Positions 8,599-38,461 of a DNA stretch of 64,000 nucleotides are shown in pieces (within the stretch, counting starts at the first letter, position 1; every line of letters starts with the position of its first letter). The translations under genes were made by a program, and so were the position numbers. Below the pieces are notes generated by a model. It searched no databases and was not told where the DNA came from. It worked only from the letters and a program-made list of their open reading frames with translations. This DNA is from Anabaenopsis elenkinii CCIBt3563. GTDB lineage: Bacteria > Cyanobacteriota > Cyanobacteriia > Cyanobacteriales > Nostocaceae. The stretch covers positions 4,304,140 to 4,368,139 of the forward strand of contig NZ_CP063311.1 in assembly GCF_015245355.1 (NCBI RefSeq), written 5' to 3'.

Positions 8599-8626
8599 AG
8601 ATTTATTCAGGATAAATTAGGTATAG

Positions 8627-8723
8627 CATAAAACAATAAAATCCAGTCCCCTCCCCTTACAAGGGGAGGGTTAGGGTGGGGTGAAACAATAGTTGATACA
8701 CTAATCATGACTTATCAAACATC
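8627..8723 (+). repeat. Dispersed G-rich palindromic repeat, intact copy 2
   Basis: A full-length copy with the central perfect stem CCCTCCCCTTACAAGGGGAG and the tail GATACACTAATCATGAC. It is nearly identical to the copy at 10117-10434 that carries a MITE, so it serves as that insertion's empty-site reference. Confidence 0.85.
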
Positions 8724-8725
8724 CT

Positions 8726-9136: not shown

Positions 9137-9405
9137 AATTCTTCTTTAGATGCACCATATAAATAGTGATCTAGATTTTTTGATAAATCCCTTGGTAGCT
9201 GTAGATTATCTCCTGTGGGTGTTTCAGAATTGATTTGATCTATGAAATTTAACAAAGATGGTAAATCAGAATTATGAGAATTATCTTTCTTCACTATTTC
9301 TTGATTTGACCGGTATTTAATAAATAACAGGAAGTCTAAAACTTCTTTGATTAAAATATCAGGTGTTTGAGATATTTCATTGATTAATCGTTCTCTTGCA
9401 GACAT
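9133..9405 (-). CDS. DUF2281-like antitoxin partner of the PIN toxin
   Basis: 90 aa, small and acidic. The N-terminus ARERLINEISQTPDILIKEV, followed by LDFLLFIKYR, resembles DUF2281-type antitoxins that precede PIN toxins in cyanobacteria. Translational overlap with the downstream toxin supports the pairing. The C-terminus (LSKNLDHYLYGASKEEL) would be the part that wraps the toxin, by analogy. The promoter must lie in the repeat-containing gap at 9406-9650. Confidence 0.8.
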   Translation of the reverse strand: MSARERLINEISQTPDILIKEVLDFLLFIKYRSNQEIVKKDNSHNSDLPSLLNFIDQINSETPTGDNLQLPRDLSKNLDHYLYGASKEEL

Positions 9406-9436
9406 TTACTTTCTCCTTAAAACAGGGAAACATCGG

Positions 9437-9534
9437 AAACAATCAAATCTAGTCCCCTCCTCTTACAAGGGGAGGGTGAGGGTGGGGTGAAACAATACTT
9501 GATACACTAATCATACCTTTTAAAACATCCTCTT
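9437..9534 (+). repeat. Dispersed G-rich palindromic repeat, copy 3
   Basis: Same order of blocks as copy 2, with AAACAATCAAATCTAGTC at the start and GATACACTAATCATACC at the end. It lies directly upstream of the antitoxin gene. Confidence 0.8.
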
Positions 9535-9562
9535 AGGGAACACCGGATAAAAAGGGAAGTAC

Positions 9563-9650
9563 AAAATCCAGTTCCCTCTTGAATAGAGAGAACTGGGTGG
9601 GGTCAAACAATATTTAATACACTGAACATAAATTTTAAAACATCCTTTCA
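9563..9650 (+). repeat. Dispersed G-rich repeat, diverged copy 4
   Basis: Begins AAATCCAGTTCCCTC. The central stem has changed to CTTGAATAGAGAG, but the GGGTGGGGTCAAACAATATTT block and an altered ACACTGAACAT tail remain. It abuts the stop of the Rpn remnant. Confidence 0.65.
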
Positions 9651-10046
9651 ATTATCCTGTGATAAGCGCCCTTGTAACTCCCGCACCCGCTCTAAACTTA
9701 AACCTGTAATTTCTCTAGTTTCTTCTGCACCCATACCCCTGCGGAGTAAATTAATGGCGATGGTTTCCTGTGCTTCCTGAACACCTTGCTGAATACCTTG
9801 CTGAACACCTTCCTGAATACCTTCTTGGCGAGCTTTGCGTTCCCAACTGGTGACAATTTCCATATATTTTTCCTCCTGTAATAATCCCATATTATTCGCC
9901 GTCACCTGAAATAATTCCTCTTCGGTCCCATTCAAATTGAGATAGACATCCACAAACCCTGAAATTAACTGCATCCGCGCTGGGTCTAGCTTCAAAGTAA
10001 TTAACAGAGGATGTTTGGAAAGTGTTAAACAGGTAATTTTTATATT
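9648..10046 (-). pseudogene. C-terminal remnant of an Rpn-family nuclease/transposase
   Basis: About 130 codons remain, from KITCLTLSKHPLLITLKLDP to the stop. Features of the Rpn family C-terminus are visible: MEIVTSWERKARQEG, then a degenerate EGIQEGVQQGIQQGVQE repeat, and MGAEETREITGLSLERV at the end. The N-terminal PD-(D/E)XK catalytic domain is absent. In its place the frame runs into heptamer repeats that translate as FPIPYSLSPIPCSLFPN, so the apparent start near 10115 is an artefact. A MITE-interrupted repeat lies just beyond. Confidence 0.8.
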
Positions 10047-10109
10047 AGGGAACAGGGAACAGGGAATGGGGGATAGGGAATAGGGAATAGGGAATGGGGA
10101 ATGGGGAAC
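10047..10109. repeat. Degenerate heptamer tandem repeat (GGGAACA/GGGAATA type)
   Basis: About nine units of 7 bp (GGGAACA, GGGAATG, GGGATAG, GGGAATA). It marks the break point of the Rpn remnant and resembles STRR arrays of heterocystous cyanobacteria. Confidence 0.8.
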
Positions 10110-10116
10110 GCACAAA

Positions 10117-10434
10117 AAACAATAAAATCCAGTTCCCTCCCCTTACAAGGCTATCCATTACCCGGATCTTTCTTAACATTCGTGAGAGCGATCGCTCGCA
10201 AACCCCCAAACCTTAATCCTCCGTTGATGATTCTCAATAAAATAAGGGTTTTATCAAGAACAATAAGGTACATTTTGTCAAGAGTAGGGAAATTTTCAAG
10301 CGTTGAAACCATTGCCACATAAATGTTTCAAGATTGTTAAGAAAGATGTGAGTAATGAATAGCCTTACAAGGGGAGGGTTAGGGTGGGGTGAAACAATAG
10401 TTGATACACTAATCATGACTTATCAAACATCCTC
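10117..10434 (+). repeat. Dispersed G-rich repeat, copy 5, split by a MITE
   Basis: The first part, up to 10150, and the last part, from 10363, join into one normal repeat once the 212-bp insert and one copy of the duplicated 10-mer are removed. The joined sequence matches the copy at 8627-8723 almost base for base. Confidence 0.85.
10151..10362. mobile_element. 212-bp MITE with 10-bp target-site duplication
   Basis: Terminal inverted repeats of about 30 bp match at 25 of 30 positions. Left end: CTATCCATTAC...ATCTTTCTTAACA. Right end, reversed: CTATTCATTAC...ATCTTTCTTAACA. The flanks carry a perfect direct repeat CCTTACAAGG at 10141-10150 and 10363-10372. The empty site is seen at 8627-8723. 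There is no transposase inside, so it needs a helper in trans. The parent IS family is not identified; a 10-bp duplication would fit IS4-like or related groups. Confidence 0.88.
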
Positions 10435-10491
10435 TGAGGGTGGGGTCAAAGATATTTGCAGCAAATCTCTGGTGTTAATCTTGCCCATATC

Positions 10492-13400
10492 TTATATGAT
10501 ATCTCCTAAAATCTCCTCTGCTTTCAAATAAAAATGCTCAATTTTAATTAAAGGTTCCCAACCCAAGCGCACAGGGTTTTTAATAGTCACCACCCTAGGA
10601 GAAGACGCACAATTAAACACCACATATAACCAATAATCATGCTGTAATCTTTCCGCAGTTTTATATTCATTTGTAGTCAAGGCGACTTGGCCAATATTCC
10701 CCCGTCCCTTAACTTCAATAAACCTCACTTCACTAGCTTTTAAAGGGTCGCCAGAGTCTGGTTGACGGGAGATTAAATCAAAACCCCGGTTTTCTGCTTC
10801 CACACTCACAACCTCCCAACCTCTAGCTTGTTCATATTCTATCACTGCTTGAATGGCAATTTTTTCAATTTGCTCATCAGCAACCATGGGCGCAATTTCT
10901 GGGGATGTTCTTTGGGGATGGGGTAACACCCAAGCTCGCCCATGATGATTAATACTAGTAATGGTACAACTGGCTTCTTTTTGCAATTCTTCCCGACGTT
11001 GTTCTAATCGACCATTTAATTCAAATAGTCGGTCTTCTAATTGTTTAATTCGTCCTTCTAATCCCTGTTCTTTAGAGCCAGATTCCTTAAGTTCAAACAA
11101 CTCTGCATATTGAATCTGGACTTTATTGATAATCACATTCAGACTAATTTCTATATGCTGGGAAATTGTCTTGACTTCCTTTTGTCTTTCGGTGCGAATT
11201 TCTGTTAAAAAGCTATTTAATTCTTGTTCAACTAATGCTTGTTCTACCTGTTCGCGACTGGGTAAGTTACTGTCATCTGGTATGGAATTAACCCAGTTAC
11301 CATTGTCCTCACCTTCTCCACTGGTACTAGATACTAAATCTAAAAATATGGTTGGTTGACGGATGGTGATTTTTCCATCTAACTCTGTCTGGACTACATA
11401 TAAACGTTCATGGAGTTTATTACCCCGTCCATCACTAATCCCGGCGGAAAATACATCTAACCTCCCTGGGGTGTGACGATGTAAATCAAAAAATACTGCA
11501 CCGCGGTGCTGGTGTTCCTGTACTTTGGTAGCAACTTCCTCCCGCACACATTCAAATAGGGGATGTCCTGGGGTGACCCATTCTAAGGTGGGGTCATCTG
11601 TCAAGATATGTTTATCAAAGGTAATCTTTTTATACTCTCGCCCCAATTTACCAAAGCGAGTTTCTAATTTATCTCCCGTTCCCCACAAGGTGCGCGGAAC
11701 CCGCCCAATTTTATATATTTTCTTACCCTTCCCTGTTTCCTTGGGATGAATCCCCGCTATGAATGCTGCTTGGACAAAGAAATCATGGATGACTTCGGGG
11801 ACTAATCGCCGTTCCTTAGCTTCAGCAGATTTACTGATAATTTGTGACAGATTTAATTCCCGTCTGGCTAATCCTTCCAAGGCAGAATCGCTAATTTTAC
11901 GGAAATGTTCTGTATCTACTTGTTCTACAATCCGATTCAGAATTGCCGACTCAGTGAGGTTATGGGCGTACATATCCCGGATCATCTTTTCTAACTCATT
12001 GGCGGGGAAAACATCCCCTAGGACGTTAAATACTTTACCGGTTCTTTCCGGGTCTAAATCCCTTTCAATGGCGCGAATCCGCTCAAACAGCTTCCATAGT
12101 ACCTTACCTTCAGTGGTATTAATAGCGACAAAGTTAAAAATTAAACAATCTTTATCCTGGCCGTAGCGGTGAATACGTCCCATCCGCTGCTCTAACCTGA
12201 CGGGATTCCAGGGGATATCATAATTAATCATGAACCAGCAGAATTGTAAATTAATTCCTTCTCCCGCTGCTTCCGTCGCTACTAGTACCTGACACTCTTC
12301 TTTAAATTTCCGTTCGGAATAGATGCGAGTGTTGGGTGTATCTCGATCGCCTATTTTCATTGTTCCATGAATTTGGGTCACGGATAAACCCCAAGCTTGT
12401 AATTTCCCCACTAGATAATCTAAGGTGTCCTTATGCTCAGTAAAAATGAGCATTTTCATCTTAGGGTCTTGAAAAATTCCCTCCTGGGTAATTACTTCTT
12501 TGAGTTTGACTAATTTAGATTCTACTTCCCGTTTTTCTAAGCTCAAGGCTTGATGAATTAAAGCAGTTAATTGTAAGATTTCCCTTTGTAATGCAATGGG
12601 GTCAATAGAAGCTACCACACCTTCTAAATCCCCCATAATTTTTTCCTGTTCTGTGTCTGTTAAATCATTAAAGTCATCGGGAAGCTTTTTCTTAATTTGC
12701 TCTTGACGATGGGCTTCTGGATCTTCTAAAATTCTTTGGCGTTTATCGCGCATTCGTTCTAAACTGCGCCGCACAGCGTAAATACTAGAAGCAAAGCGAC
12801 GTTGTAACATCGCCATGGTAAAACCTAATGCTCTACCTTTAGCTGTATCATCGGTTGCAGCTTTGATTGATTGGTCTTCTACATAGTCTGTCAGAGCATG
12901 ATAAAATTCTAATTCTTCCGCGTCAATTTGAAACTCAATGGTATCAACTTTGCGATTAGTGAATAATTTTTTAACAATACCGGTTTCTGCATCGGGAAAT
13001 GTTTTTAAAGATTCTTTGGTACGACGCAGGTAAAAAGGAGCATGATTTTGATCAATTGCAGCTTGTAAACTTTGCACATCCCCATACACATCTCTATCTA
13101 ATAATTCTAGGAATAAACAAAAGTTTTTTGGGTCGCCCTTGTGGGGGGTAGCGGTCATTAATAAATAGTGGTCGGTAATTTGGGAGAGTTGTTCACCCAG
13201 TTTATAGGCTAAAGTTTTATTATCGGAACTGTAAGCACTCATTTTATGTGCTTCATCCACAATAATTAAATCCCAGTTACTTCTTAATAAACTATCTTTC
13301 GCATCTTGAATGCGAGAAACCCAAGATACAGAAGTAATCACTTGACTTTTGTCTTGCCAAGGATTAGAACCATAATTAGCCCGCAGGACATCACCCCGGA

Positions 13401-13935
13401 TTACCTCAAATTCTTCGCGAAATTTGTCTTTTAGTTCTCGTTGCCATTGAAATGTCAGGTTGGCGGGTGTAATAATTAGGGTACGTTTCACCAGTCCCCT
13501 AGCTTTTAATTCTTTGAGCAGCAACCCCGCCATAATGGTTTTACCCGCTCCGGGGTCATCCGCCAGTAAAAACCGCAGCCTTGGCTGTTTTAAAAAATAC
13601 TCATAAACCGCCTCTAATTGATGGGGGAGGGGGTCTACCCGGGCGATCGCCAAGGCAAAATAAGGATCATATTCGTAAGCTAACCCCAAACGTAGAGCTT
13701 CCACACCGAACCGAAAATACTGGGCGTTACCATCAAAGGGTTCTCTTTCCGGTGTAGCTTGTAACTGTTCCAACTGTTCAGCGTTGAGTATGGGTTGATA
13801 AACCTGATTAGTTTTGAGTCCTTTACCCGTGAGTTTAACTGCTGTCCCCATTGTTTTCACGGACAACACCTGTACTGGTTCTGGAAAGATGGAACCACGC
13901 ACAATTACATCTTCTTGTAGCTGGTCAATTTTCAT
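10492..13935 (-). CDS. SNF2-type helicase with C-terminal DUF3883 domain
   Basis: 1147 aa from the ATG at 13935. A TTG 15 bp upstream is in frame, but GAGAGG sits 7-8 bp before the ATG, so the ATG is chosen. Walker A LADDPGAGKT is near residue 125, DEAHK near 228, and helicase motifs V/VI (EGINLQF, EQRMGRIHRYGQ) near 560-595. A coiled region around 950 precedes the DUF3883 module (ENRGFDLISR...RFIEVKGRG, about 1050-1090), whose D and ExK resemble a PD-(D/E)XK fold. Such helicases accompany DUF1156 and DUF499 proteins in anti-phage loci. It is the first gene of the minus-strand block. DNA translocation is well supported; nuclease activity of the tail is inference. Confidence 0.9.
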   Translation of the reverse strand: MKIDQLQEDVIVRGSIFPEPVQVLSVKTMGTAVKLTGKGLKTNQVYQPILNAEQLEQLQATPEREPFDGNAQYFRFGVEALRLGLAYEYDPYFALAIARVDPLPHQLEAVYEYFLKQPRLRFLLADDPGAGKTIMAGLLLKELKARGLVKRTLIITPANLTFQWQRELKDKFREEFEVIRGDVLRANYGSNPWQDKSQVITSVSWVSRIQDAKDSLLRSNWDLIIVDEAHKMSAYSSDNKTLAYKLGEQLSQITDHYLLMTATPHKGDPKNFCLFLELLDRDVYGDVQSLQAAIDQNHAPFYLRRTKESLKTFPDAETGIVKKLFTNRKVDTIEFQIDAEELEFYHALTDYVEDQSIKAATDDTAKGRALGFTMAMLQRRFASSIYAVRRSLERMRDKRQRILEDPEAHRQEQIKKKLPDDFNDLTDTEQEKIMGDLEGVVASIDPIALQREILQLTALIHQALSLEKREVESKLVKLKEVITQEGIFQDPKMKMLIFTEHKDTLDYLVGKLQAWGLSVTQIHGTMKIGDRDTPNTRIYSERKFKEECQVLVATEAAGEGINLQFCWFMINYDIPWNPVRLEQRMGRIHRYGQDKDCLIFNFVAINTTEGKVLWKLFERIRAIERDLDPERTGKVFNVLGDVFPANELEKMIRDMYAHNLTESAILNRIVEQVDTEHFRKISDSALEGLARRELNLSQIISKSAEAKERRLVPEVIHDFFVQAAFIAGIHPKETGKGKKIYKIGRVPRTLWGTGDKLETRFGKLGREYKKITFDKHILTDDPTLEWVTPGHPLFECVREEVATKVQEHQHRGAVFFDLHRHTPGRLDVFSAGISDGRGNKLHERLYVVQTELDGKITIRQPTIFLDLVSSTSGEGEDNGNWVNSIPDDSNLPSREQVEQALVEQELNSFLTEIRTERQKEVKTISQHIEISLNVIINKVQIQYAELFELKESGSKEQGLEGRIKQLEDRLFELNGRLEQRREELQKEASCTITSINHHGRAWVLPHPQRTSPEIAPMVADEQIEKIAIQAVIEYEQARGWEVVSVEAENRGFDLISRQPDSGDPLKASEVRFIEVKGRGNIGQVALTTNEYKTAERLQHDYWLYVVFNCASSPRVVTIKNPVRLGWEPLIKIEHFYLKAEEILGDII

Positions 13936-14121
13936 CGGGTTACCTCTCAATACTCAGGAGTATATCTGTTACCAGCACTCTACTGATTATATAAGTATAA
14001 GCATATTGAGGTAAACTTTAGGTGAACTTTATAGTTAAAATTGTTGTACTTAAAGGTGATGGAACTTAATAAATTAACTAAATATTTTTACATAAAATAA
14101 CTTTTTAGGGTAGGTAAAAAA

Positions 14122-27737: not shown

Positions 27738-28076
27738 ATGATCCAGTTGACACCATCGGTAATAGAATTAGTTGAAGAAATTGTAGCTGTTAATCAAGCC
27801 TGGAAACTAACTGCTGACATGGGAGAGCATACCTCAGCCATAGCAGACTCACTCGCGGATTTAAAGAACCGGTTACAAGTGCGACTCTTACGTACTTATG
27901 CACCCGAACAGGTTTATTTAGAAGTTGATACTTCTCCAGAAACAACAACCACAGAAGAACTTTATGGGTTAATTCTACGCCAACCAATAGGTGATTATTG
28001 GAATGCGGCACATCTTCCCGTGCGTGTAGCTCAACAATTGCTGTCTTCTGAAGAAATAGCCAAATTTACAATTTAG
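27738..28076 (+). CDS. Unknown 112-aa protein, first gene of the Zorya-like operon
   Basis: 112 aa, acidic, no signal peptide or membrane segment. The N-terminal part (VIELVEEIVAVNQAWKLTAD, then SAIADSLADLKNRLQVRLL) looks helical; the rest (TTEELYGLILRQPIGDYW, HLPVRVAQQLLSSEEIAKF) is mixed. The ATG has AGGGA 6-7 bp upstream. It ends 16 bp before zorA, so both are very probably co-transcribed. I do not recognise the family. Candidate roles, by position only, are a regulator, an immunity/control factor or an added subunit of the ZorAB complex. Confidence 0.72.
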   Translation: MIQLTPSVIELVEEIVAVNQAWKLTADMGEHTSAIADSLADLKNRLQVRLLRTYAPEQVYLEVDTSPETTTTEELYGLILRQPIGDYWNAAHLPVRVAQQLLSSEEIAKFTI

Positions 28077-28092
28077 TGGGGAGTGTAGTCAA

Positions 28093-30120
28093 ATGATTCA
28101 AGGCTTCATCAATATTTTTTGGCAGAATACTTTTTTTCATTGGAGTATTCTAATTGTTTTCCTGGTGGGAGGAATAGCCGAAGTTATATCTATTCTTCTG
28201 TATTGCAGTTCCACAAAAAGAGATTTGGAAGATACTAAAAAAAGTATTAATTACTTGCAGAGCCAGAGAAATCAACCGCAAAATTCACAGACGAATGAAG
28301 TTACTTTAAACCCAAATGGACGATTGTCCTGGTTCCGGAAACATCTAGCTGGAACAGATACTGAGGGAGGTTTCCAACCCAAAGTTGAGGCGGGAAAATT
28401 TGTATTATTACAATACCCAAGAATTTTAAATCCCTCTATTCGTAGCAGCTATTTGCGTTTTATACCTACCATTCTCATCGCCATTGGTGTTTTAGGAACC
28501 TTTTATGGGATTCAGGAAGGATTATCACAAATAGACCTGAGTAATATTAATCAAAACAACTCCAACTTACTAGAAGCTAGTGTCAATCTTCTAGAAGGTA
28601 TGAAAACTGCTTTTTCTACTTCATTGATGGGGTTAGGCTCTAGCAGTGTATTTACTATTCTCTTAGCAGTTGGAGAAGCATATAAACGCTTACGTGGTCA
28701 TGAATTACGCCAAAAATTAGATAGGATTGCTTTTGTAGAAAGTCCCACAAGGCTTTTATCTCGTTTTAACCTTGATGGAACTGAAAAAGCAGCAACCAGT
28801 TTAAGGGATGCTGCTGAGAGTATGAAAACCGGATTTCAAGAATTAATCCAGGTACAAAGTAAATTAAGTCCTGATGCTATTGGTCGAGAAGTGGGAGCAG
28901 TCATGTCTCCCATTTTTAAGGACATCAAAGAAGAACTATCAGCACTCAGAGAAATTAAACAGGATCAAGGTCAGGAAATATTAAGAAATTTAATTACAGA
29001 ACAAAGAGAACAATTAATCAAACCCCTCATAGCTGAACTTACCAAGAGTGCACAACTGACTCAAGAAGCTTCTCAAGCAGTTCGTGAACTCAGAGAAGAA
29101 CTGGGGGGAATTTCCCAAAGTCTCAGCACATCTGTAATGACTATCCAAAAATTCCAAGAAGAGACTTTAGTTAGATTGCAGGAATTTGCAGTTAGTTTGC
29201 AGTCTATCTTAACTGAATTTCGTTCTGATACTCAAGGAGTAATGGAAAGGGTATCTACAGAAATTCAGTCAGCTGTAACTGCAAGTGTTGAAGCGATAAA
29301 TTCTCAGAGAATTGCTTTTGAAGTCAGTTCTAATCAAGCAGCCAATACTTTTAGAAGTATTCGAGAAGATTTAGAAACCGCACTACATACCCAAGCAGAA
29401 ATAGAGCGTCAAATGCTCCAGGAATTTCAAGATCGAACCCTGGCGATTATCACCACACAAACTGAAAGTATTACCACCGTTGGTAATGAAGCATCTCAAT
29501 TAATGAATGGAGCCAGAGAGAACTTAATATCTACTCTCTCTAACATTGATACTATGCTGCAAAATACCCGCATCACTGTACAGGAAGAACTACAGCAATT
29601 CCGCCTGAGTTATCAAACAGCTTTACAAGAGTTCTTCAATAGCCAAAATCAGTTACTAGAAGAAACCCTAGGGGAACAGCGTCAAGGACTAGCTCAGGTT
29701 GTCAATGATTTACAGACTGCTTTTAACGAAGAATATCACAGACGCTCAACTTTAACCGCACAAGTGGACGAAAGTATGAGCAGAATTGGGCAAACTGTAG
29801 AGAAGGTCAGTAATTTTGCTAATGTCACCGGGTTAACTTCAGGAGAAAGGCTAGCACAAATCCAAGAAATTACCAGGGGATTGGGTCGAGAAGCTCATAG
29901 GATTGAACAAACCTATGCAGCTATGATTCAACAGTTAAATCAGGCTTTGGAAATAAGTAATCAACATTTAGTTGATTACCTAAATCAAGCATCTGCATCT
30001 GAAAACCTGTTTTTCACCCAAGCAGATGAAGCCACAACCAGAATTTCTAATCAATTACTACAAGCTGCTAATTATCTAGTAGCTGCAGAAGCTAATCGTC
30101 GTCATCAATCTGAATCATGA
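28093..30120 (+). CDS. zorA: ZorA-like MotA/ExbB-type proton channel with long coiled-coil tail
   Basis: 675 aa. Hydrophobic segments lie at about residues 18-38, 122-141 (IPTILIAIGVLGTFYGI) and 176-197 (TSLMGLGSSSVFTILLAVGE), the MotA/TolQ/ExbB layout. From about 230 to 640 the chain is polar and heptad-like with many Gln/Glu, predicting a long coiled-coil tail. This is the architecture of ZorA, which pairs with ZorB as a proton-driven inner-membrane motor whose tail signals phage entry into the cytoplasm. Its stop overlaps the zorB start (ATGA). Length is close to type I ZorA (about 700 aa). Function by family and neighbours. Confidence 0.88.
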   Translation: MIQGFINIFWQNTFFHWSILIVFLVGGIAEVISILLYCSSTKRDLEDTKKSINYLQSQRNQPQNSQTNEVTLNPNGRLSWFRKHLAGTDTEGGFQPKVEAGKFVLLQYPRILNPSIRSSYLRFIPTILIAIGVLGTFYGIQEGLSQIDLSNINQNNSNLLEASVNLLEGMKTAFSTSLMGLGSSSVFTILLAVGEAYKRLRGHELRQKLDRIAFVESPTRLLSRFNLDGTEKAATSLRDAAESMKTGFQELIQVQSKLSPDAIGREVGAVMSPIFKDIKEELSALREIKQDQGQEILRNLITEQREQLIKPLIAELTKSAQLTQEASQAVRELREELGGISQSLSTSVMTIQKFQEETLVRLQEFAVSLQSILTEFRSDTQGVMERVSTEIQSAVTASVEAINSQRIAFEVSSNQAANTFRSIREDLETALHTQAEIERQMLQEFQDRTLAIITTQTESITTVGNEASQLMNGARENLISTLSNIDTMLQNTRITVQEELQQFRLSYQTALQEFFNSQNQLLEETLGEQRQGLAQVVNDLQTAFNEEYHRRSTLTAQVDESMSRIGQTVEKVSNFANVTGLTSGERLAQIQEITRGLGREAHRIEQTYAAMIQQLNQALEISNQHLVDYLNQASASENLFFTQADEATTRISNQLLQAANYLVAAEANRRHQSES

Positions 30121-30761
30121 ATAATTTTAGCGATTGGGAACCAACACCACAAATAGAAGAGGATAACTCCAGCGTTTTACTCGCCATTGGCGATATGATG
30201 TCTGGACTGTTAATGATATTTGCGCTGTTGTTTATTACCGTTTCTTTACAGTTGAGTCAAAGATCAGAACCCAGACGTATTGTCATTGGAGAAGTGATTG
30301 GTGCTTTAAAAGCAAATAACGTGAAGGTAGAAGTTAATCCAGACACCGGAGATATTAGCTTGAAAGAAAATATCCTATTTCCAGAAAATAGTGCTCAATT
30401 AAGTGATGCTGGAAAAAGCACTCTACGATCATTTATCCCGGTTTACAGTAATGTAATTTTATCCAACCCTGAATATGAGAAAGAAATTACCCGGGTTGTG
30501 ATTGAAGGACATACTAGTTCTAGTGGAACTTATAACGGTAATTTACAGTTAAGTCTGTTGAGGTCTTTTGCTGTTGCTGAATATATCTTCTCTCCAGAGA
30601 TGAAATTTCAAACTAAATCACAACTGAGTCAAAAAATCCTTGCTTCTGGAAGGGGAGAAATTGAAGCTAATCCAAATATTGATGACCCCAATGATAGAAA
30701 GGTAATTTTCCGGTTGCAATTTAAGGGAGATAATTTATCTGGTATTTTTCCGTCCAAATGA
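30117..30761 (+). CDS. zorB: ZorB-like MotB/OmpA-type stator subunit
   Basis: 214 aa. A single membrane helix at about residues 20-44 contains D26 in AIGDMMSGLLMIFALLF, the position of the proton-carrying Asp of MotB/ZorB proteins. A periplasmic OmpA-like domain follows (ILFPENSAQLSDAGKSTL near 92, VVIEGHTSSSGTYNGNLQLS near 126-145, DPNDRKVIFRLQF near 192). It would anchor ZorA to peptidoglycan and couple proton flow to movement. Overlaps zorA by 4 bp and is followed 19 bp later by zorC. Confidence 0.9.
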   Translation: MNNFSDWEPTPQIEEDNSSVLLAIGDMMSGLLMIFALLFITVSLQLSQRSEPRRIVIGEVIGALKANNVKVEVNPDTGDISLKENILFPENSAQLSDAGKSTLRSFIPVYSNVILSNPEYEKEITRVVIEGHTSSSGTYNGNLQLSLLRSFAVAEYIFSPEMKFQTKSQLSQKILASGRGEIEANPNIDDPNDRKVIFRLQFKGDNLSGIFPSK

Positions 30762-30780
30762 TTTTGACAACCTAGAAAAT

Positions 30781-32322
30781 ATGATGTTAAATTTTCGCAC
30801 TTTATCCTTAAGCGATCGCCAGTCACCGGAACCAACCAATTTACTCCAGTTAGTCAACAATTTCCCTAACAGTGGACAATTCCGCCAGCTTCACAATCTC
30901 CCTAATGTAGAAACAGATACTTGGCGTTCTTTAGATCAAATTATCGAAACCATCCAATCCGGCAATATTGACGACATTCAACACATAGAATGGGTCTATT
31001 GTCTCCATAATAAGGCTGAATGGGATAAGCAACACCCAGAAATCAGCTATACAACTTCAGCATTAATCTGGAGAGCAGCAGTTAATAACTTACGGCTCCA
31101 ACAAACTTTATTATGGCTGTTAGTGTTGAATCATAGCGAGTCACAGCCAATTATCAGTGAATCTTTAGTTACAAGTTTTTCTGTGTTTATCAGGGAATCA
31201 GGGGACAGTGACGCACAAATATTACAAATCATACAAGCCATCACCCAGGACGACTATCACAGATTAGCTTTAATTGCTAGGGAGAAGAATTGTACACCCC
31301 AAGAATTACTCAAGAAATTTAATCTTCCATCAACTGGTAATGCGGTGAATCAGGCTTTAAACTATGTAGTGACAATATTTTCAGACAGGAAAGACAAACC
31401 AGAATGGTTCCCAGAATGGTTACTGCGTTGTTTTGCGCAAATGTCCCACTCACAACAATGTCAGGAAGTTAATCGTTTATTGACAGCGATCGCCCCTGAA
31501 ATAGGAAGCGGTTTTTTATCAATCGTAGAATGGTTACGTCAAAATTATGGACCCCGCACTGTTAATTCTCGGTGGAGTCAATTATCACCACAAGCTCAAC
31601 TAGCATTACGTAAATGGATTGGTGCTGCTACTTGGGGAGATTTTGACAGAATGATTACAGCGTTAATCAATGATCGGAGTTCACAGTTACGAAACTTACG
31701 ACAGAATAACAAGATATGTGACAAACTAGATTATGAAAGAAACCAACTAGAAAGACGTAAAGAGTTTTGGTCAAATTATAGCGATCGCTTTGAACGTCTG
31801 CGTATTTTAGTACCCGCATCAACTAGTGAGAATACTCAAGAATTAACACGAGATATTGATATTCTGGTCAATGATGATAGTAATGAGACAGAAATTTGTA
31901 TCTTTGACTTTGGGGATTGGTTTATTGTAGAATTCTTCCGGGGTAATGGCAGTGAAATTTTACTGTTTAACCGCAATTCCTCTGCTAATGTGGAAGAAAC
32001 ATTATTTCAATCGCCAAATTTATCTATCTCAGATATTCGCCGTTTATATCGTTTTGGCGGTGAAATTCATGATCATGTTTTCCTCTGGCAATATTATGCG
32101 GAAAAGTGGCTGAGAACGCAACATAATATTTACCCGAATGACGGGATAACTCGTTTTAAAGGAATTCCTCCAAAATATAATCAATTTAGTCACACAACAG
32201 GTTTACCCACTCCTGCAGTAGATAAACAGAGAATCCGTGAACAACGTTTAGCACGCTGGCGCCAGGATATTCAAAGAATATACCAAGGACTTGGTATAAC
32301 CTTGAAGAACTGGAGTAACTAG
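30781..32322 (+). CDS. zorC: ZorC-like EH-signature protein
   Basis: 513 aa, no membrane segment. The segment near residues 320-345 (NQLERRKEFWSNYSDRFERL) looks like the EH_Signature motif that defines ZorC, and the C-terminus (DHVFLWQYYAEKW, NQFSHTTGLPTPAV) is consistent with it. In type I Zorya, ZorC is a DNA-binding cytosolic component that acts with the ZorD helicase-nuclease. The length is close to type I ZorC (about 560 aa). A strong terminator lies 22 bp after the stop and no zorD or zorE follows. Family call moderate to good; completeness of the system is open. Confidence 0.78.
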   Translation: MMLNFRTLSLSDRQSPEPTNLLQLVNNFPNSGQFRQLHNLPNVETDTWRSLDQIIETIQSGNIDDIQHIEWVYCLHNKAEWDKQHPEISYTTSALIWRAAVNNLRLQQTLLWLLVLNHSESQPIISESLVTSFSVFIRESGDSDAQILQIIQAITQDDYHRLALIAREKNCTPQELLKKFNLPSTGNAVNQALNYVVTIFSDRKDKPEWFPEWLLRCFAQMSHSQQCQEVNRLLTAIAPEIGSGFLSIVEWLRQNYGPRTVNSRWSQLSPQAQLALRKWIGAATWGDFDRMITALINDRSSQLRNLRQNNKICDKLDYERNQLERRKEFWSNYSDRFERLRILVPASTSENTQELTRDIDILVNDDSNETEICIFDFGDWFIVEFFRGNGSEILLFNRNSSANVEETLFQSPNLSISDIRRLYRFGGEIHDHVFLWQYYAEKWLRTQHNIYPNDGITRFKGIPPKYNQFSHTTGLPTPAVDKQRIREQRLARWRQDIQRIYQGLGITLKNWSN

Positions 32323-32344
32323 TAACATCTGAATCTAGATTACC

Positions 32345-32380
32345 ATAGTGTGTTGTCCCGCACAACGCACTATTTTTTTC
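32345..32380 (+). terminator. Intrinsic terminator of the Zorya-like operon
   Basis: ATAGTGTGTTGT / ACAACGCACTAT stem (one mismatch) around a CCCGC loop, followed by seven T. It ends the zorABC transcript 22 bp after the zorC stop. Confidence 0.88.
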
Positions 32381-32510
32381 ACGCAAAGGAGCGCAAAGGT
32401 TTAAGATTAACTACATTTACCCCAAAGGTGATTAATAATAACTTTTAAAATTCTCAATTCCCTATGATATGGGTGGAGTCAGCAACAATATATAGCAACC
32501 GCCAAGGAGG

Positions 32511-32993
32511 TTAGGACGCAAAAAGCAAGACATCCTCAATGGCATCTCGTAAAGAATCAAACCGCTCAAGTTTTTTGCGGATTCGACTTTTTAACCAAGA
32601 CCAACATTTTTCAATCTGATTCAGGTCTGGAGAATAAGGTGGTAGGTACAGCACTTCACACCCTGCGTACTGAATCAGTTGTTGAATGCGCCCACCTTTA
32701 TGAAATGTGGCATTATCCATCACCACAACCTGTCCTGGTTTGAGTGTGGGAAGCAAACAAGCTTCAAGCCAAGTCTCAAATACTATTCGATTACACGCAC
32801 CCTCAACAGTGAAAGGAGCTATCAGCTTATGGTTACACAGCGCGGCAATTATGTTCACCCGACCTTCACGACGACCTGATTTAAGTGCATGGAAGCGCTG
32901 TCCTTTTGAGTTCCAACCGTAATCATACTGGTCTCGGTTGTCCATTCCTGACTCATCGAGGTATACAATCTTCTCCACAGGTAACTCAGACAA
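32511..32993 (-). CDS. IS630 transposase, catalytic part (second frame)
   Basis: 160 aa as an isolated frame. DDE residues: D in KIVYLDESGMDNR near residue 13, D in VVVMDNATFHKGG near 97, and E in YSPDLNQIEKCWSWLK near 127, all typical of IS630/Tc1-mariner enzymes. The frame continues upstream without a start into KKTYGYRERDEVKRQAFVTQ, which meets the first frame at the A8 tract (33049-33056). The natural product is probably a single fused transposase made by ribosomal frameshifting. Confidence 0.88.
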   Translation of the reverse strand: MSELPVEKIVYLDESGMDNRDQYDYGWNSKGQRFHALKSGRREGRVNIIAALCNHKLIAPFTVEGACNRIVFETWLEACLLPTLKPGQVVVMDNATFHKGGRIQQLIQYAGCEVLYLPPYSPDLNQIEKCWSWLKSRIRKKLERFDSLRDAIEDVLLFAS

Positions 32994-32998
32994 CTGCG

Positions 32999-33385
32999 TT
33001 ACGAAAGCCTGTCGTTTGACCTCATCGCGCTCACGGTAGCCATAAGTCTTTTTTTTCGCGTAAAACCAATTTTTTTCAAAGCTCTTGAGATTGTGCGATC
33101 GCTAATTTCTTCAGGCCAAAGTGAGGCCATCTCTACTTGGGTTTTATCGCCATGTACGGAAGCAAACTCACGAAATTTTTCCCAATCGGTAATTTTGTGA
33201 CCATTCCCAGGACGCTGATTAGGCAAGGCTTGGAAGTCCCCCGTTTCGGTTTTTCGCTTCAACCATAGGGTGATGGTGTTGCGACTAATATTAAACATTT
33301 GACTGGCTTGAGTTTTCTTCAAGCCATCGAGTTCAATCGCTTGGATTACTTTTTGACGAAGGTCGTAACTGTACGGCTTGGGCAT
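32999..33385 (-). CDS. IS630 transposase, N-terminal DNA-binding part (first frame)
   Basis: 128 aa. PKPYSYDLRQKVIQAIELDG and KTQASQMFNISRNTITLWL form the helix-turn-helix of IS630 transposases. A second helix-turn-helix with SLWPEEISDRTISRALKKIG follows. After FTRKK the frame reaches eight A residues on the coding strand and then reads out of frame (RLMATVSAMRSNDRLS), so those last residues are probably used only by the unshifted product. Confidence 0.85.
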   Translation of the reverse strand: MPKPYSYDLRQKVIQAIELDGLKKTQASQMFNISRNTITLWLKRKTETGDFQALPNQRPGNGHKITDWEKFREFASVHGDKTQVEMASLWPEEISDRTISRALKKIGFTRKKRLMATVSAMRSNDRLS

Positions 33386-33474
33386 ATACCTGTAGCAAGC
33401 GATCGCTTCACATGAAAAGGGACTACTTATAGTTTATGCTTAAATTACCTTGGCGGTTGCTATATAGGTTGATT

Positions 33475-33936
33475 ATGCCACAGCGGGTAGTTACAGAAGT
33501 CAAAAGTTGGTTTAGGCGTGAGAGAATTGTGAGGAACTTAGAAATTTTCCAAGACTTTATTGTAATTTCTCTATGCTTGGGATTATTCGGCGTGATGCTG
33601 ATTAGACTAGGTGATATGTTTTTGTTATTTTTACGTCCCTTGGATTTACGGGAAGTAACATCTGATATTTTGTTTATTTTGATTTTAGTAGAATTATTCC
33701 GGTTATTACTTGATTATATCCAGGAGCAGCAGATTTCTGTAGGGGCAGCGGTAGAAATTACTATTGTATCTGCTTTGCGAGAAGTAATTTTACGTGGGGT
33801 TCTGGAAATTCCCCGCGATCAAATTTTAGCTATTTCTGTATTTCTCATGGTTTTAGCAGGAATTCTCGCCGCATTACCTTGGATATCTCGATTTTTTGAA
33901 CACGTTAAACTTACCAGTGAGGAAATCAAGCAGTAA
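33475..33936 (+). CDS. PsiE family membrane protein
   Basis: 153 aa from the ATG at 33475. The frame is open back to 33436, but that stretch lies inside the IS630 end, so the later start is preferred. Four hydrophobic segments are visible, e.g. DFIVISLCLGLFGVMLI and ILFILILVELFRLLL, plus AISVFLMVLAGILAALPW. The order matches phosphate-starvation-inducible PsiE proteins, whose function is unknown. The IS630 sits directly upstream, so native promoter and leader are displaced. A HIP1-centred palindrome lies 34 bp after the stop. Confidence 0.82.
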   Translation: MPQRVVTEVKSWFRRERIVRNLEIFQDFIVISLCLGLFGVMLIRLGDMFLLFLRPLDLREVTSDILFILILVELFRLLLDYIQEQQISVGAAVEITIVSALREVILRGVLEIPRDQILAISVFLMVLAGILAALPWISRFFEHVKLTSEEIKQ

Positions 33937-33970
33937 AAATTCACTGATATTTTTATTTGTGAATTAAATT

Positions 33971-33998
33971 CGGTAGTTGGGCGATCGCCCAATTACCG
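33971..33998. terminator. HIP1-centred palindrome after psiE
   Basis: CGGTA-G-TTGGGCGATCGCCCAA-T-TACCG is symmetric apart from one mismatched pair and could form a hairpin with GCGATCGC at its tip. There is no T-run, so its role as terminator is uncertain. The rest of the 341-bp gap to the ParM-like gene shows no gene and no clear array of direct repeats. Confidence 0.5.
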
Positions 33999-34278
33999 AT
34001 GATATTAATCATAAAATATTTTACCCAAAATATACTTTGTATTTTTTTATATTCAATCAATATCCTAGGGAAAAAAGCAGTTATTTATCTTGACTTAATT
34101 AATAGAATATGCGTGTCTGGGAAAAAGATCAGCGATACCAGATTTTTAGAAGTCATGGTAATTTAAGCTTTAGTTGATAAAATCTATGGACTAGCAGGAT
34201 TACTGATATGCCTAGATCCCTTAATTCTTGAATTGGGGTAAAACTGTTCCTTGCAAATTTTTAGGTCTACATTTACAA

Positions 34279-35406
34279 ATGTCTAAAAATCTCAACTCTC
34301 AAGAGTTAAAACCTGATCAACCCAATGATCAACCTCCTGCGGAATCTCAAACAGCAGTAAAACGGGAAGCAGATACACGCAGTTCAGTAGAAACTGGTTT
34401 ATCAAAGGATACCGCATTTGTAGCTGCTCCTAGAGCCATTGAAGTGATTTTTGACCCTGGTAATCGCTCAATTCTGCTCTATGATGGCAAGAATCTTGTC
34501 AAACTAGCTTCTTTATATGCATGGCTATCTGGGAATCGTAAACCCATCCGTATGAATGATCAATCATCTGTTGTTGAAATTCATACCTCAGATGGTAGTT
34601 CTGAATATAATGGTACTCGCTATTTGATTGGCGAAGCAGCCTCCAGACAACCCCGTTACGAACGGGTCTACAATCGTCCTAAATTTGATGAATGCTTACT
34701 TTATCTGCTACCCTGTATCGGTAAACTTTTCCCCAAACAGAAAGATCTGACTCTAGCGGTGAAAGTCAATGCTACAGAAGCTGAACTTCATCAAAATCTT
34801 TTGGAGCAAAAGCTCAAGGGAAAGACAGAAGCTACTCTTGACGGACGGGATATCTCACTCACGGTGGAGTCTGTGACTGTTTTTGAGGAAGGTTTGGGAG
34901 CTTGGTATCTGCTGAATGATTCTGAACCTCAAATCAAAGGCCACTATACAGGAGTGCTAAATTTGGGCGGAGCCACTATTGACTCTATTTTAGTGGATTA
35001 TGATGGCTATGTTTTAACAGAAGCCAGTTTGAGAAGTCCTAAGGGGGGTACATTTGACCTGGCCACGGAAATCAGACGCGTCATTACAGCTGACCGAGCA
35101 GATATGGCTTATCTAGAGGCCGATGTAATTATGAATTGTCTGGAGTTCAATGATTATGTCATTGATGGTTATGATTTCTCATCTATTGTCAGAAATGAGA
35201 TAGATAACTGGTTTAAGTCGGTGATGGGAAAAACTCAAGCTGTCTGGTCTAGTTACTTCCATAAAATTTCTCGCTATATCCTTACAGGTGGTAGTGCTTA
35301 TCTAGTTATTGATAAAGCTGCTCGTTCCCCCAAGTTCCACGTTACCCGTAACCCCGTATACGATAATGTTATAGGTCTCTATGGACGACAAAAAATTAAT
35401 AGCTAA
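34279..35406 (+). CDS. ParM/StbA-type actin-like ATPase
   Basis: 375 aa from the ATG at 34279 (a TTG at 34228 is in frame but weaker). Actin-fold motifs: phosphate-1 EVIFDPGNRSILLYDGK near residue 38, phosphate-2 GVLNLGGATIDSILVDYDGY near 222, and adenosine motif RYILTGGSAYLVI near 335. Such proteins form ATP-driven filaments that move plasmids or other DNA, through a ParR adaptor on a parC site. Genes on both sides look chromosomal. A short inverted repeat (ACATTT-AC-AAATGT) overlaps the start codon and could affect translation. The last codons overlap the next gene. Confidence 0.83.
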   Translation: MSKNLNSQELKPDQPNDQPPAESQTAVKREADTRSSVETGLSKDTAFVAAPRAIEVIFDPGNRSILLYDGKNLVKLASLYAWLSGNRKPIRMNDQSSVVEIHTSDGSSEYNGTRYLIGEAASRQPRYERVYNRPKFDECLLYLLPCIGKLFPKQKDLTLAVKVNATEAELHQNLLEQKLKGKTEATLDGRDISLTVESVTVFEEGLGAWYLLNDSEPQIKGHYTGVLNLGGATIDSILVDYDGYVLTEASLRSPKGGTFDLATEIRRVITADRADMAYLEADVIMNCLEFNDYVIDGYDFSSIVRNEIDNWFKSVMGKTQAVWSSYFHKISRYILTGGSAYLVIDKAARSPKFHVTRNPVYDNVIGLYGRQKINS

Positions 35407-35770
35407 TATGGATTTTGTCAGGAAAAAAATTGCTCGACGTAAGCTTCAAAAACGTTCCGGTTCAACCCATGTCTGGAGCATGACTGCTACGATCAAGGAA
35501 GAAAATTATGATGTGGTATTAACCGAAGGTGACAATAGCGAAACTGACAGCGTATCTAAAGTTGTTAACCGTGCATTAACTCTGATGCAAAGATTAATGG
35601 ACTCTACCCAAACCGATACGTTTTCCGAAGCTATGGATGTCGCCCTTCGGTTGGTGAAGCAGACTAACTTATCTACTGTCAAGGAGTCTGAGAATGTTGT
35701 TTCTCAACCAGATCATTCAAACACAAACATTGATTTTGTTGATCCTGATTTTTTGAATGTCATGGGATAG
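35381..35770 (+). CDS. Small basic/acidic protein overlapping the ParM-like gene
   Basis: 129 aa. The ATG at 35381 has AGG 6 bp upstream and lies 26 bp inside the ParM-like gene; the alternative ATG at 35408 lacks a ribosome site. The N-terminus is strongly basic (RKKIARRKLQKRSGS), which could contact DNA or RNA. The middle (VSKVVNRALTLMQRLMDS, FSEAMDVALRLVKQ) looks helical, and the tail is acidic (DFVDPDFLNVMG). Position and coupling suggest a ParR-like adaptor for the filament protein, but I do not recognise the family. Confidence 0.75.
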   Translation: MDDKKLIANMDFVRKKIARRKLQKRSGSTHVWSMTATIKEENYDVVLTEGDNSETDSVSKVVNRALTLMQRLMDSTQTDTFSEAMDVALRLVKQTNLSTVKESENVVSQPDHSNTNIDFVDPDFLNVMG

Positions 35771-36055: not shown

Positions 36056-38461
36056 TCAGGAATCAGCGACAATCTGCTGAAAATCTTCATTGCTAATTAC
36101 AGGTAATAAATGATCATACAACTGCATAGACTGTAAACAGTTATTAATATGGGAGACTGCTGTGTTATAACCATCAATTTTCTCTTTAACAACATTCAGT
36201 AAGCGTTGATTACTCAGAATTTTGTCCTCTGCTTCCTGTTGTAAAGTTTTTTCCAAATAAGCACGGGCTTGGGAGTATTGCTGTAATATATTATCCTCTT
36301 GCTCCTGTGCCATGGCTAATAATTGCTTTTTGAGGATGGTGTTGATAGTTTGACGCAAAGATTTACAAACTGTCTGGGAAACCTTTGGTTCAAAATCCAA
36401 CTTTAACAATTGTCTAATTGCTGGTTCAGCTTCTACCATACTTTGGGAATCGTAACTTTGGGAGGTTTGCAACAAAGTCTGACGAAACTGATATATAGAA
36501 AAAGTCCCCTCATCATAAAATCTCGGACTTTCTCGCACAAAGCGATCGCATTCCGCACTCGCTGCATTATCCAAAATCACTGAAACGTTTTTGGCTGTAG
36601 CTTTTACCTGTTCCTCAATTCCCCCATCATTACCTAACAATCGATACAATTGACGATAGTATTCTGATTTGCGAATCTTGTCAATTAATTGCCCAAACAA
36701 ATTATTTACTAATTGTTGACAACATTCGCTCAAAATATCCTCTAACTCGTTTGCTAAATAATAAAATGCTTCTACTAAAATCGCCAGTAAAGGCGCAGTG
36801 GAATTGCGGGGATGGCTACGGGTAGAACGTTGATAAGCATCAGCGACGGAAAATGTGTTTAGTAACTCATCTAAACGCCGAATCATCCGCCCTTGTAGTT
36901 GGCGAAAATCACGCTCAAAAGCATCACAGGAATGATTAATTATTAGGTTGACCTCTTCTGTGATGTGCTGACCAAATTCTTTAGATACTTGCTGGAGTTG
37001 CTGATTCAGTCGTTGTAACTCCTGCGCCTTCATCCCCTCAATTTCTCGCGGTTGACTATCTAGTTTTATGTATTCAGTTTGATAATGTTTTTTTAATTTA
37101 ATACAAACATCTTCTAAATCATCAGCCAAATTTTCAAATAGTTGTGGGCGCTTTTCTTCTACCAAATATTTAGTAATCGCTGTGCGAAATTCCTCAATAC
37201 CACTATCTTGAATTAGCTGATTAATTAAAGGCGTTCCCTGCTCTGCTAAAATTCTGACATAATTCTCATTGGGAGTTTCATAACTGTTTACCGAAATCCG
37301 AAAATGACTGGATGATAATTTACCAGAATTAGCACAGTAACGGTTAAACTCATTAATAAATTGCGGTGTTTCTTCTCTCCCATTACTACTTTTAACAGTA
37401 TCTGCAAAAACAGAATCTAACCCAAATCTATCGCTGATAGTTGTATGTTTAATCTGACTGCCGTAAAATCCCAGTAATCCACTGGTTTTATAGACCCTAG
37501 GAGCATCACGAAACTCTTTACTGATTAAGTCATCTAAGCGCTGCTTTAGCTGGGTATTATACCAAGTTTCATCAATGCGGTTGAAAGTGTAGAAAATGCG
37601 ATCGCGTATTCCCCCATTGTCTCGCATTATTTCTAAAAGTTCCGTTTCCTCCTTGGTCATATCACCAGCAGCAGCAGGTTTTAATACACACACCACCGCT
37701 GATGTATCCGGATGTTGAATTTTAGCATAAGTTAACTGTGCATCCTTCTCCACCGGTGCATCAATACCAGGAGTATCAATAATTACATTTCCATCTTCTA
37801 ACAGGGGATGATTGCAGTAATATTCAATTCGTTTTAAAACAGAGCTATTACTACCACGCCGCGCATATCCCGCAGCTTCCTTAATATTAGAAAAATTAAA
37901 TTGCTCCATAGAATATGTAGCATTCTTCATCGTCTGAATATGTTGACGATTTGCCTCATAGCCATCAAGTAGTAATATTAAAGCCCTCCCTTGTTTTGCT
38001 CGTTCTGACTTACTTTCTCCACCTTCCTGCTGAATAATAGCATTACAACCTTGACGCAGTAAATCAATAATTTCAGGTTGGTTAATATTAGCTGCTGTTT
38101 GAAACCCCAATTTTTCACATAAAAAACTGGCTTGTTCCCGAATTTCTACTTCACTTAAAAAGGTTAAAACCACCCTTTCCTGATCTAATGGTGCATACTC
38201 AATTCTGCATTCTGTACCTGTAGCGTGTCCTTCTGCACTGTATAGTAATTCCCTTTCCAGTAGTGCATTAATCAACATCGACTTACCCGCACTAAATGCA
38301 CCTGCAAAGACAATTTCAAACTGCGGTGAAACGACTTTTTCCAGAGAAGTTTGCACAGATGCAATATCTTCAGAGCGCAAAGATGGCTCTTGTTGCAACA
38401 GTTGTAATACAGTTTCAACCTGCTGTTTTAAATTTTCACACTGGGTAGGGAGGTTCGACAT
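36056..38461 (-). CDS. Bacterial dynamin-like GTPase
   Basis: 801 aa. G1 GAFSAGKSMLINALL is at about residues 55-69, G2 region GTECRIEY near 82, G3 VIIDTPGIDAP near 226 and G4 TFNRIDE near 290. Long helical regions follow (residues about 440-800, with a hydrophobic APLLAILVEAFYYLANEL stretch near 562 that could insert in membrane). Dynamin-like GTPases remodel membranes, and some protect cells from phage lysis. It is coupled to a small HNH nuclease and near a GIY-YIG protein and the Zorya-like genes, which favours a defence or membrane-stress role. Function inferred. Confidence 0.85.
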   Translation of the reverse strand: MSNLPTQCENLKQQVETVLQLLQQEPSLRSEDIASVQTSLEKVVSPQFEIVFAGAFSAGKSMLINALLERELLYSAEGHATGTECRIEYAPLDQERVVLTFLSEVEIREQASFLCEKLGFQTAANINQPEIIDLLRQGCNAIIQQEGGESKSERAKQGRALILLLDGYEANRQHIQTMKNATYSMEQFNFSNIKEAAGYARRGSNSSVLKRIEYYCNHPLLEDGNVIIDTPGIDAPVEKDAQLTYAKIQHPDTSAVVCVLKPAAAGDMTKEETELLEIMRDNGGIRDRIFYTFNRIDETWYNTQLKQRLDDLISKEFRDAPRVYKTSGLLGFYGSQIKHTTISDRFGLDSVFADTVKSSNGREETPQFINEFNRYCANSGKLSSSHFRISVNSYETPNENYVRILAEQGTPLINQLIQDSGIEEFRTAITKYLVEEKRPQLFENLADDLEDVCIKLKKHYQTEYIKLDSQPREIEGMKAQELQRLNQQLQQVSKEFGQHITEEVNLIINHSCDAFERDFRQLQGRMIRRLDELLNTFSVADAYQRSTRSHPRNSTAPLLAILVEAFYYLANELEDILSECCQQLVNNLFGQLIDKIRKSEYYRQLYRLLGNDGGIEEQVKATAKNVSVILDNAASAECDRFVRESPRFYDEGTFSIYQFRQTLLQTSQSYDSQSMVEAEPAIRQLLKLDFEPKVSQTVCKSLRQTINTILKKQLLAMAQEQEDNILQQYSQARAYLEKTLQQEAEDKILSNQRLLNVVKEKIDGYNTAVSHINNCLQSMQLYDHLLPVISNEDFQQIVADS

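What the first reader, a model, noticed from the sequence alone, without database searches (positions are those of the whole stretch)
27738..32380. Zorya-like operon: ZorA, ZorB, ZorC plus an extra 112-aa first gene, and no ZorD or ZorE
Seen: ZorA-like motor with long coiled tail, ZorB with membrane Asp 26, ZorC-like EH-signature protein, 4-bp and 19-bp spacings, and a strong terminator right after zorC. Known: type I Zorya needs ZorD (helicase-nuclease), type II ZorE (HNH), type III ZorF/G. None follows here, and IS630 lies beyond the terminator, so it did not simply split off zorD. Inferred: a minimal or variant Zorya in which the 112-aa protein, or a gene in trans (SNF2/DUF3883 helicase at 10.5-13.9 kb, HNH at 35.8 kb), supplies the effector.
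Basis: partly seen in the sequence, partly recalled or inferred. Interest (0 to 1): 0.82.

Follow-up and report, generated by a model that had tools for sequence, protein, structure and literature searches.

The report
Cyanobacterial Zorya variant with new subunit
Many filamentous cyanobacteria carry a four-gene version of the Zorya anti-phage machine in which the usual DNA-cutting helicase ZorD is missing and a small, highly conserved protein of unknown fold travels with the motor and DNA-binding genes instead.

Summary
The operon is real: a 112-aa protein (here "X"), ZorA, ZorB, ZorC, then a strong terminator. ZorA/B/C match PADLOC type I models at 853, 232 and 590 bits; the modelled ZorC matches solved ZorC (8r68) at Z 13.2. 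Motor residues and ZorC's E384/H432 are invariant in 43 full-length loci.

X is no local oddity. It co-occurs with ZorC (192 genomes: X in 61, ZorC in 58, both in 52; 386 genomes: 24, 29, 23). Intact X accompanies 42 of 43 full-length ZorABC sets, before zorA (36) or after zorC (6). No other fifth gene recurs. No ZorD was recognised beside zorC or, with one ZorD model, elsewhere in 58 zor-positive genomes.

Counter-case: one genus (29 genomes searched) has no detectable X; ZorC stands alone in 13 genomes, always with H432 changed to R; ZorAB lie on another contig in the 3 checked.

Verdict: a ZorD-less Zorya variant defined by a new component. I infer that X acts on the cytoplasmic side with the ZorA tail and ZorC. 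Its activity, and phage defence itself, are untested.

The parts
27738..28076 (+). X: 112-aa cytoplasmic protein of unknown family, first gene of the operon
   Evidence: conserved family; predicted helix-helix-three strands-two helices, pLDDT 84; beside zor genes or remnants in 73 of 74 X loci, one of these at 1.6 kb
28093..30120 (+). ZorA: motor subunit with long cytoplasmic tail (675 aa)
   Evidence: PADLOC ZorA1 PDLC00597 853 bits; PDB 8qyh E 1.2e-5; T136 and S177 invariant in 43 of 43
30117..30761 (+). ZorB: stator subunit, membrane Asp26 and OmpA-type peptidoglycan-binding domain (214 aa)
   Evidence: PADLOC ZorB1 PDLC00609 232.5 bits; OmpA 41 bits; PDB 8qyd E 2.1e-7; D26 in 43 of 43
30781..32322 (+). 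ZorC: EH-signature protein (513 aa)
   Evidence: PADLOC ZorC1 PDLC00618 590.5 bits; EH_Signature 73 bits; model matches ZorC 8r68 Z 13.2, rmsd 6.6, 344 aligned; E384 and H432 in 43 of 43
32345..32379 (+). Intrinsic terminator closing the operon
   Evidence: 12-pair stem then T run; fold z -4.27

Best explanation
This is a four-component Zorya variant of cyanobacteria, X-ZorA-ZorB-ZorC, that has no ZorD. ZorA and ZorB form the ion-driven membrane motor that binds peptidoglycan and reports an envelope insult through the long ZorA tail (inferred from invariant motor residues and homology to solved ZorAB). ZorC is the DNA-binding signal receiver, as in type I (inferred from homology). X is a dedicated cytoplasmic component that takes the place ZorD has in type I: most likely it docks on the ZorA tail and/or ZorC and turns the motor signal into ZorC action on incoming DNA, either by licensing ZorC or by forming the active complex with it. 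Shown: composition, linkage, conservation, absence of a recognisable ZorD. Inferred: the mechanism and the anti-phage role.
For: Linkage: X in 61 and ZorC in 58 of 192 family genomes, both in 52; 24, 29 and 23 of 386 in the phylum sample (Fisher 1.4e-30 and 1.8e-30; samples overlap and genomes are related, so the p-values overstate). Intact X in 42 of 43 full-length ZorABC loci, the other one (L035) having X broken by a stop; order X-A-B-C in 36, A-B-C-X in 6. No other flanking family is shared beyond 11 of 58 loci, these mainly same-site Nostoc neighbours. ZorD: model PDLC00628 finds only SNF2 cores (model positions from 429 on) in the own genome and in 58 further genomes, none near zor genes. 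X is under purifying selection, dN/dS 0.13-0.49 in 8 pairs, and keeps N19, W22, K23, K43, Q47, D64, E73, H92, R96 in 42 of 42. X to the ZorC site: the genus without detectable X has H432 changed to R in 13 of 13 ZorC. Partial distance correlation of X is highest with the ZorA tail (0.32), then ZorA head (0.22), ZorC (0.15) and ZorB (-0.18) in 41 loci; this is weak evidence.
Against: No activity or interaction is shown. In that genus ZorA, ZorB and ZorC persist under purifying selection (dN/dS 0.09-0.26) without X or ZorD, so X is not needed for keeping the other three. The X-loss/H432R link is one evolutionary event. Only one ZorD model was used genome-wide. Most loci sit among housekeeping genes, not in defence islands, so the defence role rests on homology. 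Between the two Nodularia, zorA and zorC show dN/dS 0.87 and 1.00 at very low dS.
Confidence: 0.5

Rival explanations
1. X is itself the effector, a small nuclease or nucleotide-acting enzyme of a new fold delivered by the motor, which replaces the ZorD nuclease.
For: Invariant polar set D64, E73, H92, R96, K43, Q47; from the predicted strand order, D64, E73 and H92 would lie at the same edge of the sheet (inference from the secondary structure; no coordinates were inspected). In E. coli, type I ZorABC without ZorD gave no significant protection (PMC11890865, Fig. 2 legend, passage seen), so something should supply an effector.
Against: No nuclease family in Pfam, NCBIfam, PADLOC, PHROGs or PDB sequences and no convincing fold match. 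An intact X stands without zorABC in L128 and beside zor remnants in others, so free X is tolerated. Median pI 5.75.
Confidence: 0.17
2. The system is not (or no longer) an anti-phage system: it is an envelope-linked motor with a cellular role, kept vertically in Nostocaceae and often lost.
For: Recurrent neighbours are housekeeping genes, and one site is shared by 10-11 Nostoc-type loci. One genus keeps solitary, syntenic ZorC with an altered EH site and a separate ZorAB pair under purifying selection. Few flank genes match defence models: no family matched more than 3 of 121 scanned proteins.
Against: Patchy distribution with several insertion sites and much decay (by my length limits 33 of 58 family genomes with a ZorC match have full-length ABC), a copy on a mobilizable plasmid of Nostoc sp. 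HK-01 next to a helicase and methylase, and homology to proven defence systems. These are habits of defence genes.
Confidence: 0.2
3. A host protein in trans, such as the SNF2 helicase found in every genome searched, supplies the ZorD function.
For: A SNF2 protein of about 1020-1110 aa scores about 250-296 bits on the ZorD core in most of the 59 genomes searched.
Against: It is also found in a genome that I included by slip without known zor genes (G123), and the same search rings in Synechococcus elongatus and other controls, so it is generic; the first 428 positions of the ZorD model were not matched in any row. HmaA in the window belongs to an Hma system.
Confidence: 0.1
4. ZorD was lost recently here and X is an unrelated passenger.
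For: IS630 lies just downstream.
Against: The relative without the IS has no zorD either; X linkage and order change across families; no EH_Signature protein outside this lineage in 386 genomes, that is all 25 genomes found are among the 29 with this ZorC, and no zorD beside the loci fetched.
Confidence: 0.03

Closest known systems
Zorya type I (ZorA, ZorB, ZorC, ZorD)
   Same: ZorA and ZorB with the motor residues; ZorC with EH signature and a fold match to solved ZorC 8r68 at Z 13.2.
   Different: No ZorD helicase-nuclease; a fourth gene X instead; sequence subfamily far from the E. coli one (best ZorA model 853 bits, next 47.6; ZorC matches one ZorC model only; no PDB sequence match for ZorC).
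Zorya type II (ZorA, ZorB, ZorE)
   Same: ZorAB motor.
   Different: No ZorE HNH nuclease in the operon; ZorC present.
Zorya type III (ZorA, ZorB, ZorF, ZorG)
   Same: ZorAB motor plus small extra proteins.
   Different: ZorC present; X has no Pfam match, so it is not recognised as DUF3348 or DUF2894.

Membership tests
Zorya (all types) | ZorA: MotA-like membrane region with polar ring residues and long cytoplasmic tail | tested here: met
   PADLOC 853 bits; alignment to 8qyh; T136 and S177 in 43 of 43, length 599-839 aa
Zorya (all types) | ZorB: membrane Asp and peptidoglycan-binding OmpA domain | tested here: met
Zorya type I | ZorC with EH signature | tested here: met
   EH_Signature 73 bits; 8r68 Z 13.2, rmsd 6.6, 344 aligned (Foldseek alone did not list it in its 50 printed rows); E384 and H432 in 43 of 43
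Zorya type I | ZorD helicase-nuclease next to zorABC | tested here: not met
   Absent in the window and in L040; model PDLC00628 finds only SNF2 cores, none near zor genes, in the own genome and 58 further genomes, one of them (G123) not zor-positive (rows at E <= 1e-20)
Zorya type II | ZorE HNH nuclease in the operon | tested here: not met
   Nearest HNH is an 80-aa protein on the other strand, 3.5 kb beyond zorC, 18.8 bits to ZorE2
Zorya type III | ZorF (DUF3348) and ZorG (DUF2894) | tested here: not met
   X has no Pfam hit and no PADLOC hit better than 0.019; the first two genes on the zorC strand beyond the IS/PsiE insert (34228-35403, 35381-35767) have no PADLOC family
Zorya (all types) | Protects against phage | not testable with these tools
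   needs a plaque assay
Hma (for the trans candidate) | HmaA helicase with HmaB methylase | tested here: met
   window 10492-13950 HmaA 641 bits; 4931-7948 HmaB 425.7 bits; HmaC not looked for

The most novel reading that the evidence does not exclude
X-ZorABC is a separate Zorya type of cyanobacteria in which a 112-aa protein of a new fold, not a nuclease-helicase, is the dedicated partner that converts the rotary motor signal into ZorC action on phage DNA. Loss of X together with the H432R change of ZorC and the scattering of the operon in one genus would then show that X and the ZorC EH site work together.
Probability: 0.45. Interest if true: 0.78.

Novelty: new variant of a known kind. Interest (0 to 1): 0.62.

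Why it matters
Zorya is thought to work by motor-driven recruitment of a nuclease (ZorCD or ZorE). A widespread version with ZorAB and ZorC but no recognisable nuclease, always accompanied by a new small protein, is a natural test of what the motor and ZorC do by themselves. It also adds a candidate component that family libraries do not hold, and a simple knock-out test of it.

Tried and rejected
IS-split zorD: rejected by the uninterrupted relative. A missed fifth gene: clustering of up to 6 flanking ORFs (80 aa or longer) on each side of 58 loci gave no family in more than 11 loci; those shared by 8-11 loci are almost all same-site Nostoc neighbours. The 857-868 aa ORFs upstream of zorA in some A-B-C-X loci were read by their first residues only (one looks aminopeptidase-like from recall) and were not followed. 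A helicase just behind zorC in two congeneric genomes (L053, L055) has SNF2/helicase domains (L053); since no family other than through the added HmaA reached more than 3 of 121 members and the best DpdE value (3.9e-209) is not HmaA's, I take it as DpdE-like, not ZorD; the attribution to these two is inference.

Fold of X: Foldseek against PDB had no match with E below 1.5, VIA-align best Z 7.6 over the helix hairpin only, viral library best E 0.16; no fold was assigned. X-ZorC profile comparison showed no relation. X in viral contigs: 31 pattern matches, none a relative. X in phage records: none in 50,697. X in plasmids: 1 of 72,556.

Zorya plasmid loci of other bacteria gave a type II-like set in Vibrio and no ZorD usable as a query. 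Hu et al. 2025 (Nature) is not held and is cited from recall only; the roles of E. coli ZorA T147/S184 and ZorC E400/H443 are recalled. Literature searches for a cyanobacterial, ZorD-less or X-bearing type; none described one in the listings or in the passages I opened.
Full report
What is there. PADLOC names ZorA1 (853 bits), ZorB1 (232.5) and ZorC1 (590.5); X has nothing better than E 0.019. Pfam and NCBIfam give X no family, ZorB an OmpA domain and ZorC an EH_Signature. NCBIfam Zorya models for ZorA and ZorB are matched only far below their cut-offs, so this is a distant subfamily.

Members of the machine. ZorA aligns with solved ZorA 8qyh and ZorB with solved ZorB 8qyd, with Asp26 on Asp26. 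ZorC has no sequence match in the PDB. A model from 8 sequences (mean pLDDT 81) has solved ZorC 8r68 as its best VIA-align match, Z 13.2, rmsd 6.6, 344 residues; the next row has Z 7.2. Foldseek's own 50 printed rows do not show it. Over 43 full-length loci ZorA T136 and S177, ZorB D26, and ZorC E384 and H432 are invariant. That these are the counterparts of E. coli T147, S184, E400 and H443 is recalled, apart from the alignments printed.

How common. With ZorC as query, 58 of 192 sampled genomes of the family match; with a profile of X, 61 of 192. Both are present in 52; 9 have X only and 6 have ZorC only. In a phylum sample of 386 genomes (which overlaps the first) X is in 24, ZorC in 29, both in 23. 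Chance would give 18.4 and 1.8 shared genomes; the Fisher values of about 1e-30 ignore relatedness. EH_Signature was found in 25 of 386, all among those 29, so no other EH_Signature protein was found in that sample.

X belongs to the unit. I fetched neighbourhoods of the ZorC and X matches of both samples (one 22-bit X fragment in G377 was not fetched). Dropping six loci that repeat the same genomes (L032, L033, L036, L037, L039, L104), 58 loci hold A, B and C ORFs; 43 of these are full length by my length limits. Of the 43, 36 have X before zorA, 6 have X after zorC, and one (L035) has X interrupted by a stop. Of 74 loci with X among 90 examined, 72 have a zor gene or remnant within 1 kb, L094 at 1.6 kb, and L128 none. 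The nine X-only genomes of the family sample thus prove to be decayed loci, with L128 the one orphan. ZorC without X in these samples: short remnants, contig ends, L110 (A-B-C with short zorA) and the genus described below.

No ZorD. A ZorD1 model finds six SNF2-type matches in the own genome, the best 269.9 bits over model positions 501-963 of 1171 and 85 kb from zorC. In 59 genomes (58 zor-positive and G123 by slip) each row printed at E <= 1e-20 starts at model position 429 or later and none lies near zor genes; the same search rings in 7 of 14 control genomes. No other flanking family is shared by more than 11 of 58 loci, and the larger ones are chiefly same-site neighbours in Nostoc-type genomes. 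In a PADLOC scan of 120 flank ORFs plus HmaA of the window, no family matched more than 3 proteins; only the top 25 of 92 families were printed. The relative L040 lacks the IS630/PsiE insert and has no zorD at that place.

The nature of X. X is 111-125 aa in most members; 16 positions are invariant in 42 of 42 (I15 N19 W22 K23 K43 Q47 L50 L51 P56 L61 D64 E73 A90 H92 P94 R96). Its model (7 sequences, pLDDT 84, pTM 0.77; two of the five models near 84, the others 60-70) is two helices, three strands and two helices. No fold match is convincing. In 8 pairs its dN/dS is 0.13-0.49; ZorA 0.29-0.87, ZorB 0.11-0.64, ZorC 0.25-1.00, the highest values all being for the window and L040 at dS 0.11 or less. 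Pairwise distances of X follow those of ZorA, ZorB and ZorC (r 0.80-0.89, 41 loci); the partial correlation is highest with the ZorA tail (0.32) and negative with ZorB (-0.18). This fits a cytoplasmic partner but is weak.

A natural experiment. In one genus of the order, ZorC is found in 13 of 29 genomes and X in none (one search had no positive control of its own, though a sister profile of X finds members of many families; a relaxed search of three of these genomes gave one chance-level match). In the 13, ZorC stands without zorA, zorB or X in the stretches fetched and has R at position 432, E384 being kept (3, 10). Three were checked for ZorA: it lies with zorB on another contig with all but one of 43 ZorA and 34 ZorB invariant residues each. 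dN/dS of the three genes is 0.09-0.26. So X loss, scattering and change of the signature histidine go together, once. This supports a link between X and the ZorC site; it also shows that ZorABC can be kept without X, which speaks against X as a strict requirement.

Mechanism. Published work: ZorAB is a 5:2 motor, ZorB binds peptidoglycan, the ZorA tail is needed, and type I ZorABC without ZorD gave no significant protection in E. coli (PMC11890865: introduction and discussion read, other passages seen). A review says that the motor recruits ZorC and ZorD to injected DNA (PMC12904381, passages). By analogy I propose that X takes ZorD's place as partner of the ZorA tail and ZorC. Whether X licenses ZorC, forms a nuclease with it, or blocks DNA is open. 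I give 0.5 to the partner reading, 0.17 to X as effector enzyme, 0.2 to a non-defence role and 0.1 to a host protein in trans.

Known or new. PADLOC-DB already has models that fit this ZorA, ZorB and ZorC, so the genes are not unseen. PADLOC's paper defines type III by ZorF and ZorG and allows relaxed 'other' calls (PMC8565338, passages). The distribution passage of PMC11890865 names proteobacterial genera for types I-III. Searches for a cyanobacterial or ZorD-less type found no description; a Synechococcus paper reports a type II Zorya (PMC10696648, passages). I rate it a new variant of a known kind.

Noticed in passing
L142:7249-14200, L143:5305-11117, L144:6420-15060: A second, different ZorA/ZorB-like pair (ZorA 544-642 aa, at most 56 bits to ZorA models; ZorB with the membrane Asp) next to a 1024-1083 aa tubulin-like gene (Tubulin_2, 363 bits in L142; the others by like start sequence) and, in L142 and L144, a 369-382 aa gene of unassigned family. 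It may be a motor plus tubulin-like module.
   Followed up: partly
window 4931-13950: HmaB-like methylase and HmaA-like helicase on the minus strand: an Hma-type defence pair in the same window.
   Followed up: partly
window 32440-33999: IS630 with split transposase plus a PsiE-like gene, absent from the otherwise collinear Nodularia relative L040.
   Followed up: partly
L115, L116, L118, L146-L155: Solitary syntenic ZorC with H432 changed to R in 13 of 13, in a genus without detectable X.
   Followed up: yes
L104 (Nostoc sp. HK-01 plasmid2, AP018320.1): X-ZorABC on a mobilizable plasmid, followed by a SNF2-type helicase and an Eco57I-type methylase.
   Followed up: partly
window 36056-38461 and L126:5717-8422: Dynamin-family GTPases near X/zor loci in two genomes; in L126 it follows X and a zorA remnant where zorB and most of zorC are missing.
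   Followed up: no
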